This document shows, one piece after another, positions 23,946-27,569 of a DNA stretch of 64,000 nt (position 1 is its first letter; each line of letters starts with the position of its first letter). The position numbers and the translations under genes are program-made. The notes below the pieces were generated by a model. It made no database searches. It was not told the DNA's origin and worked only from the letters and a program-made list of their open reading frames with translations. Source of the stretch: Bacteriovorax sp. BAL6_X (lineage in GTDB: Bacteria; Bdellovibrionota; Bacteriovoracia; Bacteriovoracales; Bacteriovoracaceae); assembly GCF_000443995.1 (NCBI RefSeq), contig NZ_AUMC01000003.1, positions 372,001 to 436,000 of the forward strand, given 5' to 3'.

Positions 23946-24875
23946 CTATAGATTTCTTTTTCCAGAGCCATCCGGAGAGTCCAGAATATATTGGGGGAGA
24001 AGCCAACCCGGAACTTGGCGACGAAGTTTGCGATAAATTTCACGGCCCTTATCTTGAGAGAGATAAAAGTGCATGGCACCTTTGGTTTGATCTGGATGAT
24101 GGAGGTAGTAAGGTCTTACTCCTAATTCATGTAATGTGTAGATAAGCTTCACTAAATCATCAACATTATCGTTCACACCTTTTAAAAGCACGGATTGTGA
24201 AAGTAGTGAAAAGCTACTTCCAAGCCTTGCTATGCAATTACGTACATCTTTTGTTATTTCATCTGTGTGATTTATGTGAATAACAATATTGATATCGTTA
24301 AAATCTTGCCTGTAGTTGTTAAGAACTTCGATTACTTCATTACCAATATAATTTGGAAGCGAGGCCGGAGTTCTCGTATGAAAGCGTATGAATTTAATAT
24401 GCTCAATTTTACTAAATTGATTTAGGTAGAAATCAATCTTTGAAGCAGAAAGCATGAATGGGTCACCACCTGAAAAAATGATTTCATTAATTTCTGAATG
24501 GGACTTTAAATATGCAATAACTTTCTCAAAGTCGGCCTTAAAGATTTCATGCTTGTCGCTTAGTTCGTTCTTTCTAAAACAGTAGCGACAGATAACTGGA
24601 CATATCGTTGTCGGTGTAAAGAGAACGCGATTATCGTAGCGGTGAATGAGTTGTGGGGCAACGTATTTTTCTTGGTCGCCAATTGGATCTTCAAGTCCCA
24701 TATCCGAAGACTCAAAAGCTGAAGGAAGGAATTGTTTGGCATGAATTCCGTCTAAGCCTTCTTTCTGAATGATTTCATTGATGTGGTCGGGGATAAAGAC
24801 TTCGTAACGAGAAGGCCCTAAATTTAAACCAAAGCGAGCATTGATTTCATCTGTGCTTCGCAGTCCTTTTCTCAT
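23946..24875 (-). CDS. Radical SAM lysine 2,3-aminomutase family (EpmB/KamA-like)
   Basis: The 309-residue protein has the radical SAM cluster motif CPVICRYC (Cys 92, 96, 99) after LIHRYDNRVLFTPTTI, then IIFSGGDPFML. These are hallmarks of the lysine 2,3-aminomutase family, which uses PLP and SAM. The short length without extra N-terminal domains suits EpmB, which makes beta-lysine for elongation factor P, better than catabolic KamA; efp and epmA are not in view. The C-terminus (LDSPDGSGKRNL) keeps the Ser-Gly-Lys expected for PLP binding but ends early, exactly where an inverted repeat begins. It overlaps the membrane-protein gene by four bases. Confidence 0.85.
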   Translation of the reverse strand: MRKGLRSTDEINARFGLNLGPSRYEVFIPDHINEIIQKEGLDGIHAKQFLPSAFESSDMGLEDPIGDQEKYVAPQLIHRYDNRVLFTPTTICPVICRYCFRKNELSDKHEIFKADFEKVIAYLKSHSEINEIIFSGGDPFMLSASKIDFYLNQFSKIEHIKFIRFHTRTPASLPNYIGNEVIEVLNNYRQDFNDINIVIHINHTDEITKDVRNCIARLGSSFSLLSQSVLLKGVNDNVDDLVKLIYTLHELGVRPYYLHHPDQTKGAMHFYLSQDKGREIYRKLRRQVPGWLLPQYILDSPDGSGKRNL

Positions 24876-25138
24876 TTTTGATCTTGATCTTCTTGATTTC
24901 TTTGTGCTTCTTCGTGTTTCTTAATATCGTTTAAATGATGCCACTTGGCCCAAGCTGCACAACCACGAATAAGTAGGGCACCGTAAAGTGCAATTCCCGT
25001 AAAGTGAAGCATAACACTTATAGTTGAAAGAACACCTGTATTTTGAAGTAACCAGTAAATCCAATAGAGTAAGGCGATGTGAATAACGAAGATCACAACA
25101 AATTGGATTTTATATGAGATAGATTTTCCTGCTAACAT
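24872..25138 (-). CDS. Small two-helix membrane protein
   Basis: The 88-residue protein has hydrophobic segments at about 11-32 and 39-58 and a charged C-terminal tail (KKHEEAQRNQEDQDQK) likely in the cytoplasm. No family is recognised. Its stop overlaps the start of the radical SAM gene (ATGA), so they are translationally coupled. It follows the exonuclease gene by 15 bases on the same strand. Confidence 0.65.
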   Translation of the reverse strand: MLAGKSISYKIQFVVIFVIHIALLYWIYWLLQNTGVLSTISVMLHFTGIALYGALLIRGCAAWAKWHHLNDIKKHEEAQRNQEDQDQK

Positions 25139-25153
25139 TGCGCCTTTATATAA

Positions 25154-26005
25154 CTACTTTGAGTCATTTTCAACATACTCACGGATTTCTTGAATCTTTT
25201 TAATGGCAAAAGACTTGTATATATCTGTAAGTAGGCAGTGAGCGTAGAGAACATCTCCTGCTGGCATTGGAAGCAAGGCAACAGGTTTTATTGGTCTAAA
25301 CTTGCCTTTATAAGATCCGCCCTTATATTTGATATCAATTATTTCTTGTTTAGAAATATGCTCTTGAAGTTTTTGGATTGTTTCAGGGGCTTCTGCAATA
25401 TTGGCCTTTCTGAAATCTTGAATATTTAAGATTTCACCTTCTTTGAGCTGGCGATTGGACTTTACTCCATCAAGGGTTTTGGCAAAAACTCGCAGACATG
25501 CGATTGTATCGTCTAGTGCGCGATGGTGATTTTCAAGTGGAATATCAAAATGTTTACACAATGAACTTAGTTTATGGTTTTCACTGCCTTTGACGTATTT
25601 ACGAGAAAGTTTGCATGAGCAATAAACTTTGGCTTTATGTAATTCTATCTTAAGTTGATGCATAGCAAAGACGATAAAGCCTATATCAAATTTTGCATTA
25701 TGGGCAACGAGAGTGTGAGTTCCACAGAACTCAAGAAATTTTGGTAAGACTTCTTCAATTGAAGGAGAGTCCTTAACCATCTCGTCAGTAATACCATGGA
25801 TTTTTGTTGTGAATTCTGGAATTGGATTTATAGGTTTTACAAGGGTTTCGAAAGTTTCGATTTTATTCCCGATGACTTTAATAGCCGCAATTTCAATGAT
25901 TTCGTCAACTAAAGGGGAGAGTCCAGAGGTCTCTAAGTCGAGTGCTATAAGGCCTTCTGGGAAATACTTATTGATATTTTTAATTTCGCTTTGTGTAAAA
26001 TTAAT
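25154..26005 (-). CDS. DEDDh 3'-5' exonuclease (DnaQ-like), probable ATT start
   Basis: This protein resembles the DNA polymerase III epsilon exonuclease domain. In a 283-residue reading it has LDLETSG (Asp 23, Glu 25), HGITDEM, HNAKFD (Asp 107) and NHHRALDDT, which complete the DEDDh active site. The first in-frame ATG (25780) would remove the essential LDLET motif. Between it and the in-frame stop near 26041 there is no ATG, GTG or TTG. ATT at 26005 is preceded by AAAGGG with six bases between, so I propose a non-standard ATT start. The C-terminal ~100 residues form an extra domain (IDIKYKGGSYKGKFRPIKPVAL), perhaps a WYL-like or binding module. Confidence 0.75.
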   Translation of the reverse strand: MNFTQSEIKNINKYFPEGLIALDLETSGLSPLVDEIIEIAAIKVIGNKIETFETLVKPINPIPEFTTKIHGITDEMVKDSPSIEEVLPKFLEFCGTHTLVAHNAKFDIGFIVFAMHQLKIELHKAKVYCSCKLSRKYVKGSENHKLSSLCKHFDIPLENHHRALDDTIACLRVFAKTLDGVKSNRQLKEGEILNIQDFRKANIAEAPETIQKLQEHISKQEIIDIKYKGGSYKGKFRPIKPVALLPMPAGDVLYAHCLLTDIYKSFAIKKIQEIREYVENDSK

Positions 26006-26180
26006 GAGAATCCCTTTAAGTTGGCTTATAGAGGGCTGTTACGACGATTTGTAAATATTAACGAATCGTAGCAACGTGTCATGCCAATTTTAAATAATTT
26101 TAGTACGTTGAAGAACCTTAAATCTTAACTTTTATTACTGATTATGGGCCTTATGGTCAATAGTTTGAGGAAATATTTTT

Positions 26181-27569
26181 ATGAAGAATTTTGATGTTAT
26201 TGTTATTGGTTCTGGGCCTGGTGGATACGTCGCCGCTATTCGTGCAGCCCAACTTGGAAAGAAGACTGCGATCGTTGAAAGTAAAGAGCTTGGCGGTGTT
26301 TGTCTTAACCGTGGATGTATTCCAACGAAAGCGGTTCTAAAAGCGGCTCACAGTGTACACGAGCTTGCTGATATGAAAGATCTTGGTATTGATGTTGAAC
26401 TGAAAGGTTTAAATGGTGGCCAAGCTGTTAAGCGTGCAAAAGGAATCTCTGCAAAGATTTCTGGTGGTGTTGCTTACCTAATGAAGAAAAACAAAATTGA
26501 AGTTTTTGAAGGTTATGGAAAACTTCGCACTAATACACAAGTTGAAGTTACTTCATCTCGTGGTCACACTGAAACAATTGAAGGAACAAATATCATCCTT
26601 GCAACTGGTGCTCACTACCGCTCATTCCCTGGACTTGAGCATGATGGGAAGAGACTGATCGGTGCTTGGGAAGCGATTAAAATGGAAGAGCTTCCAAAGT
26701 CAATTGGTATCATCGGTGCAGGTGCAATTGGTGTTGAGTTTGCTTACTTCTGGAATGCGTTTGGTGTTGATGTTCATATCTTTGAACTACAAAAGCATTT
26801 ACTTCCAATTGAAGATGAAGAGTCATCTAAAGTTGTGGAGAAAGCATATAAGAAATACGGAATTAAAATGTCTCTTGGTGTTGAAAAAGTATCTGCTAAG
26901 AATAATGGAAATGACGTTACAATCACGGAAGTTAAAGGCGGAAAAACGGTTGAACACAAGTTTGACATGGGTCTTATCGCTGTTGGTATGACAGGAAATA
27001 TCGATGGAATCGGACTTGAAACAGTTGGTGTTCAAACTGATCGTGGATTTGTTGCCGTAAATAATACTTACCAAACAAATGTACCTAATATCTACGCAAT
27101 TGGTGACCTTGCTGGTCCTCCTCTTCTAGCGCACGCAGCTTCTCACGAAGGTATTATTGCAGCTGAAGCAATTGCAGGTCTTCACCCACACCCTCTAGAT
27201 AAGATGAATGTTGCTGGTTGTACTTACTGTCAGCCTCAAGTTGCATCTGTTGGTTACACAGAAAGAGCTCTTAAAGAGCAAGGTATTAAATACTCAGTAG
27301 GTAAGGTTCCATTTACTGCAAATGGTAAGGCCATGGCCTCTAATGAAACAGAAGGGTTTGTTAAAACTCTTATGGGTGAAGATGGAGAAATGCTTGGTGC
27401 ACACATTGTTGGTACTCATGCAACTGAACTAATTCACGAGTATGTACTGTTCAGACAAATGGAAGGTGTTGATGAAGAAATGTTCGCAACAATTCACCCA
27501 CACCCAACTTTAGGTGAATTCCTAGCTGAGTCTGTGTTAAACGCTAAAGGTAGATCAATCAATTTTTAA
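26181..27569 (+). CDS. lpdA: Dihydrolipoyl dehydrogenase (E3)
   Basis: E3 reoxidises dihydrolipoyl groups of 2-oxoacid dehydrogenase complexes with NAD+. The 462-residue protein shows the FAD motif GSGPGGY (10-16), the redox disulfide CLNRGC (Cys 41, Cys 46), the NAD motif GAGAIGVEFA and the C-terminal catalytic HPHPTLGE. The length is standard. GAGG lies near the start. The E2 gene follows after 19 bases, so the two form an operon. Confidence 0.95.
   Translation: MKNFDVIVIGSGPGGYVAAIRAAQLGKKTAIVESKELGGVCLNRGCIPTKAVLKAAHSVHELADMKDLGIDVELKGLNGGQAVKRAKGISAKISGGVAYLMKKNKIEVFEGYGKLRTNTQVEVTSSRGHTETIEGTNIILATGAHYRSFPGLEHDGKRLIGAWEAIKMEELPKSIGIIGAGAIGVEFAYFWNAFGVDVHIFELQKHLLPIEDEESSKVVEKAYKKYGIKMSLGVEKVSAKNNGNDVTITEVKGGKTVEHKFDMGLIAVGMTGNIDGIGLETVGVQTDRGFVAVNNTYQTNVPNIYAIGDLAGPPLLAHAASHEGIIAAEAIAGLHPHPLDKMNVAGCTYCQPQVASVGYTERALKEQGIKYSVGKVPFTANGKAMASNETEGFVKTLMGEDGEMLGAHIVGTHATELIHEYVLFRQMEGVDEEMFATIHPHPTLGEFLAESVLNAKGRSINF

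What the first reader, a model, noticed from the sequence alone, without database searches (positions are those of the whole stretch)
25154..26041. Exonuclease gene with no ATG, GTG or TTG start
The DEDDh motif I lies upstream of the first ATG, and no standard start exists between it and the upstream stop. ATT at 26005 has AAAGGG at perfect spacing. ATT starts are rare (infC and pcnB of E. coli) and are used for autoregulation by initiation factor IF3.
Basis: seen in the sequence. Interest (0 to 1): 0.6.

Follow-up and report, generated by a model that had tools for sequence, protein, structure and literature searches.

The report
AUU-started exonuclease, conserved in its genus
A bacterial nuclease gene lacks every normal start signal and most likely starts at the rare codon AUU, and its relatives in the same genus seem to start at AUU, AUC or AUA too, which probably keeps the enzyme scarce.

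Summary
The open frame at 25154-26038 (minus strand) has no ATG, GTG or TTG before DEDDh motif I; the first is ATG 25780. ATT 26005 has AAAGGG at a 6-nt spacing. A sequencing error is unlikely: in all 6 genomes of the genus the orthologue has an in-frame ATT, ATC or ATA behind a Shine-Dalgarno (SD) sequence and no canonical start with an SD, and three of the six have no canonical start before the conserved core at all. The coding signal begins near codon -14, where the ATT lies. infC of the same six genomes starts at ATT behind a strong SD, so AUU initiation is expected in this lineage. A second genus (3 of 3 orthologues) and two single genomes of the family look alike; most other orthologues have a canonical start. 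The protein is a DEDDh 3'-5' exonuclease with a C-terminal WYL domain. Best reading: translation starts at AUU and is held low by start-codon discrimination, as for pcnB and infC of E. coli. IF3-dependent control is inferred, not shown. This is a new member of a known kind.

The parts
26003..26005 (-). ATT start codon (AUU), best-supported initiation site
   Evidence: In-frame ATH codon with the best SD pairing in this frame; aligned to ATT of L003 and ATA of L005 at codon -14
26012..26017 (-). Shine-Dalgarno AAAGGG, 6 nt before the ATT
   Evidence: Sequence; computed pairing -4.4 kcal/mol with an assumed anti-SD
25154..26005 (-). DEDDh exonuclease-WYL gene, 283 aa plus stop
26039..26041 (-). 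in-frame upstream stop TAA
25484..25948 (-). RNase_T (DEDDh) exonuclease domain, residues 20-174
   Evidence: Pfam PF00929 E 4.4e-41
25931..25939 (-). Exo I motif DxE (D23, E25)
   Evidence: Invariant in A1, 17 rows, and A2, 28 rows
25685..25687 (-). Exo II aspartate D107
   Evidence: Invariant
25508..25525 (-). Exo III motif HxxxxD (H161, D166)
   Evidence: Invariant
25181..25384 (-). C-terminal WYL domain, residues 208-275
   Evidence: Pfam WYL 0.13 in this protein (below cut-off) but listed in 15 of 28 family members, best 9.7e-14; PADLOC WYL 1.1e-07
25778..25780 (-). first canonical start (ATG); would delete Exo I and the first strands

Best explanation
The gene encodes a 283-residue DEDDh 3'-5' exonuclease with a WYL domain. 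Translation starts at AUU (26005), guided by AAAGGG 6 nt upstream. AUU is a near-cognate codon that the 30S subunit and IF3 discriminate against, so the enzyme is made at a low level. Shown by sequence: no canonical start, SD plus AUH (AUU, AUC or AUA) in all six genomes of the genus, a coding boundary at the AUU, and AUU also at infC. Inferred: initiation at this codon, a low level of protein (likely), and sensitivity to the IF3 level (about even odds).
For: No ATG/GTG/TTG before motif I. Six of 6 genus orthologues have an in-frame ATT/ATC/ATA behind an SD, and their canonical codons, where present, have no computed SD pairing. Summed best-SD energy for the ATH class is -24.7 kcal/mol, the best of 16 NNH codon classes; codon-order shuffles reach it in 15 of 2000. 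Changed codon pairs are synonymous in 54 of 135 at codons -12 to -1 and in 12 of 156 at -25 to -15, so coding starts near -14. infC starts at ATT 4 nt behind GGAGGTG in 6 of 6 genomes. The predicted N-terminal helix (residues 5-14) begins just after the AUU, mean pLDDT 85.4. A second genus has CGGAG followed by ATT in 3 of 3 orthologues held.
Against: In L005 and L006 an ATG lies in frame upstream, and in L003 and L006 a GTG overlaps the SD; any of these could be used without an SD. By my threshold 50 of 115 family orthologues have a canonical start without an SD, so SD lack alone does not exclude a start. L006 has a stronger SD-like stretch with no start behind it. The six sequences are related, so the shuffle figure is not an independent probability. 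The anti-SD was assumed: no 16S rRNA was found in this assembly. No expression data were available.
Confidence: 0.82

Rival explanations
1. A base error in the assembly hides a canonical start.
For: One changed base would suffice in a single genome.
Against: Five other genome assemblies of the genus, 52-63% identical to this protein, show the same SD plus AUH layout. infC of the same genome also reads ATT.
Confidence: 0.03
2. Translation starts at ATG 25780 and the product is a 208-aa protein.
For: It is what a gene finder limited to ATG/GTG/TTG would call.
Against: It removes D23 and E25, invariant in 28 of 28 rows of A2, and the first strands of the fold. Codons upstream of it are under coding constraint in the genus.
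Confidence: 0.03
3. The ribosome does not select the AUU de novo but reaches it by coupling to an upstream small ORF, or translation starts at the ATG of the conserved GCATGA motif.
For: L002 and L005 have small ORFs whose stop lies near the AUH. In L005 and L006 the GCATGA ATG is in frame and open to the exonuclease.
Against: In L001, L003 and L004 no such ORF was found near the AUH; the GCATGA ORF there is 18, 5 and 5 codons and ends 20-60 nt upstream of the AUH, and it is out of frame in L001, L002 and L004. The motif overlaps the intergenic region shared with the divergent lpd gene and I see no SD before it.
Confidence: 0.08
4. Initiation is at AUU, but this is a neutral, tolerated variant with no regulatory role.
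For: Two other genes of this genome, an rlmN paralogue (ATA) and a lipase-like gene (ATT), appear to have AUH starts that the congeners examined do not share. Most family orthologues have canonical starts.
Against: The exonuclease keeps an AUH start in 6 of 6 genomes of the genus although codon identity and position change (ATT, ATC, ATA), and AUH recurs in other genera.
Confidence: 0.3

Closest known systems
infC (IF3) AUU start
   Same: AUU with SD; found in the same six genomes. PMC9410913 (passages read) describes the AUU start and IF3's discrimination against it.
   Different: The product here is a nuclease, so any IF3 effect would be on a target gene, not feedback.
pcnB AUU start of E. 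coli
   Same: A single enzyme gene limited by AUU; per the PMC9410913 passages it and infC are the only two AUU-started genes of E. coli.
   Different: pcnB is a poly(A) polymerase (recalled), not an exonuclease; no pcnB match over the cut-off was found in this genus.
cvfC1 (AUU) and ccpN (AUA) of Staphylococcus aureus
   Same: Conserved non-canonical start with SD; reporters gave about 10% of AUG in poor medium (PMC13009471, passages read).
   Different: Different proteins and phylum; those sites have extended SDs, here only AAAGGG.
DnaQ/PolC DEDDh exonucleases
   Same: Fold and catalytic residues.
   Different: Here fused to a WYL domain and not part of a polymerase.

Membership tests
Genes with a conserved near-cognate AUH start (infC/pcnB kind) | no usable canonical start; AUH in frame at SD spacing | tested here: met
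Genes with a conserved near-cognate AUH start (infC/pcnB kind) | AUH start kept among relatives | tested here: met
   6 of 6 in genus g1; 3 of 3 in g61; mostly not elsewhere in the family
Genes with a conserved near-cognate AUH start (infC/pcnB kind) | initiation at the AUH codon and IF3-sensitive, low expression | not testable with these tools
   Needs reporters and proteomics
DEDDh (RNase_T, DnaQ-like) exonuclease | Exo I DxE, Exo II D, Exo III HxxxxD; RNase_T profile over cut-off | tested here: met
WYL-domain proteins | WYL profile over the curated cut-off | tested here: inconclusive
   Pfam 12.7 bits against a cut-off of 21.8 for this protein; 15 of 28 members list WYL at E up to 1, best 9.7e-14; PADLOC WYL E 1.1e-07
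DNA polymerase III epsilon (dnaQ_proteo, TIGR01406) | score over the equivalog cut-off | tested here: not met
   93.8 bits against 222.7

The most novel reading that the evidence does not exclude
A DEDDh-WYL exonuclease is placed under start-codon discrimination repeatedly within one bacterial family (genus g1, genus g61, G032 and G074), so that its synthesis follows the ratio of IF3 to ribosomes. This would tie a nucleic-acid 3'-end enzyme to translation capacity and form an IF3 regulon beyond infC and pcnB.
Probability: 0.25. Interest if true: 0.62.

Novelty: new member of a known kind. Interest (0 to 1): 0.47.

Why it matters
Few conserved AUH-started chromosomal genes turned up in the papers I could search, and this adds one with comparative support. 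It is testable with one codon change. Gene finders limited to ATG, GTG and TTG would cut this enzyme to a 208-residue fragment without its first catalytic motif, or start it wrongly in its relatives. It also gives a second gene, beside infC, in which to ask what start-codon discrimination is used for in this lineage.

Tried and rejected
The genus was not found in genome contigs; the best hit was a Bacteriovoracaceae MAG (L031), so placing the window in or near that group is inference. pcnB was sought in the genus: 4 of 6 genomes gave sub-threshold matches only, so pcnB starts were not compared. A 16S 3' end pattern and the Rfam 16S model found nothing in this assembly, so the anti-SD was assumed. 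The order-wide search returned the same 129 genomes as the family search and added nothing. A promoter scan of 25900-26300 gave 2 overlapping weak sites on this strand against 1.0 expected. RNA folding of the start region was unremarkable, z -1.2. The careful tree did not finish; the quick tree (90 of 115 rows: 4 rows dropped as short or misplaced, and all but 4 of the g24 rows left out by me) needs 4 changes for the AUH label, but starred branches force only 1, so one origin is not ruled out. L192 was counted as start-less through my misplaced core; it has an ATG, so the count is 7 of 115, not 8. L124 has only a TTG at codon -4 and stays unresolved. Coupling to upstream ORFs was looked at and is not general.

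Full report
Observation. The frame 25154-26038 (minus strand) is open for 294 codons and has no ATG, GTG or TTG before ATG 25780. DEDDh motif I (D23, E25 counted from the ATT) lies upstream of that ATG. ATT 26005-26003 follows AAAGGG (26017-26012) with 6 nt between. The finding is confirmed.

What the protein is. Pfam RNase_T covers residues 20-174 (4.4e-41). The catalytic residues D23, E25, D107, H161 and D166 are invariant in 17 of 17 rows and 28 of 28 rows. The C-terminal part is a WYL domain: below Pfam's cut-off in this protein, but listed in 15 of 28 members, best 9.7e-14, and matched by a PADLOC WYL profile at 1.1e-07. The predicted structure has mean pLDDT 85.4. Its best solved-structure matches are DnaQ-type exonucleases, and by sequence the PolC exonuclease domain. 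The first helix, residues 5-14, starts right after the ATT. A product from 25780 would lack Exo I.

Comparison in the genus. The window's genus has 6 genomes held, and all 6 have an orthologue, 52-78% identical in protein to one another. L001 (the window), L002 and L004 have no canonical start before the conserved FP motif at the head of the core. L003 has one GTG that overlaps the SD, L005 an ATG far upstream, L006 an ATG and a GTG. In all six an in-frame ATT, ATC or ATA stands behind an AAGG- or GAGG-type SD: ATT, ATC, ATT, ATC, ATA, ATA in L001-L006. Canonical codons have no computed SD pairing in any of the six. Among 16 NNH codon classes the ATH class has the best summed SD energy (-24.7; next -18.3), and codon shuffling reaches this in 15 of 2000 trials. 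The six are related, so this is support, not a strict probability. For L002, L004 and L006 the exact AUH codon is less certain than for L001, L003 and L005, whose AUH codons align at codon -14.

Coding boundary. Over 15 genus pairs, changed codons are synonymous in 230 of 324 at codons 0 to +29, 54 of 135 at -12 to -1, and 12 of 156 at -25 to -15, counted from the FP motif. Coding constraint therefore reaches to about -12 and fades beyond -14, where the ATT lies.

Lineage context. infC of all 6 genomes has an ATT 4 nt behind GGAGGTG; one of them (L132) also has an in-frame GTG further upstream. So AUU initiation at a well-known gene is expected in this genus. In 844 kb of this genome 3 of 656 called genes have a start-less coding stretch of 36 codons or more: this gene, an rlmN paralogue with ATA overlapping the upstream stop, and a lipase-like gene with ATT. 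For the last two, the congener orthologues examined have ATG or TTG, so those AUH starts look local to this species. The same screen gave 1 of 338 in G003 (unresolved) and 0 of 291 in G007. It counts any ATG, GTG or TTG as a start, so it is a lower bound.

Wider family. 115 of 129 genomes of the family have an orthologue. Of these 115, 57 have a canonical start with an SD, 50 a canonical start without, 7 none, and one (L192) was misplaced by my script but has an ATG. Genus g61 has CGGAG followed by ATT in 3 of 3 orthologues; one of the three also has an ATG without SD. G032 (L023) and G074 (L154) are two further single cases. On a quick tree of 90 rows the AUH label needs 4 changes, with 0 of 500 shuffles as low, but a single origin is not excluded.

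Mechanism. Near-cognate AUH codons are discriminated against by IF3. [quoted passage not shown] PMC9410913 (passages read) gives infC and pcnB as the two AUU genes of E. coli. PMC13009471 (passages read) reports about 10% of AUG reporter expression for AUU and AUA sites of S. aureus in poor medium. The most likely role here is low, perhaps IF3-sensitive, synthesis of a nuclease that could harm the cell if abundant. Initiation at AUU is well supported by comparison; low expression, IF3 control and harm from excess are inference.

Against. Canonical codons exist in frame in three of six orthologues. SD absence does not exclude a start in this family (50 of 115). The anti-SD was assumed because no 16S gene was found in the assembly. 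No expression evidence was available.

Literature. Searches for AUU start with infC and pcnB, non-canonical start with IF3 and exonuclease, Halobacteriovorax with start codon, AUU/AUC/AUA with infC, infC with AUU and Bdellovibrio, and WYL with DEDDh exonuclease listed no paper that I recognised as describing this gene. Only the open library was searched, and only listings and the passages named were read.

Noticed in passing
L133 (G000:C8:142748-142954, minus) and L128-L132: infC has an ATT start 4 nt behind GGAGGTG in all 6 genomes of the genus.
   Followed up: yes
L285 (G000:C3:524142-525176, minus): An rlmN paralogue has no canonical start for 131 codons; an ATA overlaps the stop codon of the upstream gene (TAATAG), which suggests a coupled AUA start. 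Congener orthologues examined have ATG.
   Followed up: partly
L297 (G000:C3:79853-80794, plus): A lipase-like secreted protein whose signal peptide is preceded only by ATT codons behind an AAGGGCGG stretch; congeners have ATG or TTG.
   Followed up: partly
G000 and congeners: rlmN-like genes are present in up to 4 copies per genome in this genus.
   Followed up: no
window 23946-25153, minus: Directly downstream lie a small membrane protein gene and a KamA-family radical SAM gene (TIGR00238 over cut-off; related to EpmB), possibly one operon with the exonuclease.
   Followed up: no
window 26071-26087, and L002-L006 upstream regions: A conserved, partly palindromic element (TTGGCATGAC, followed in congeners by TGTCAA) lies between the exonuclease and the divergent lpd gene; perhaps a promoter or operator for lpd.
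   Followed up: partly
G003:C9:278201-279040, minus: A gene with a start-less coding stretch of 48 codons in a congener; start unresolved.
   Followed up: no
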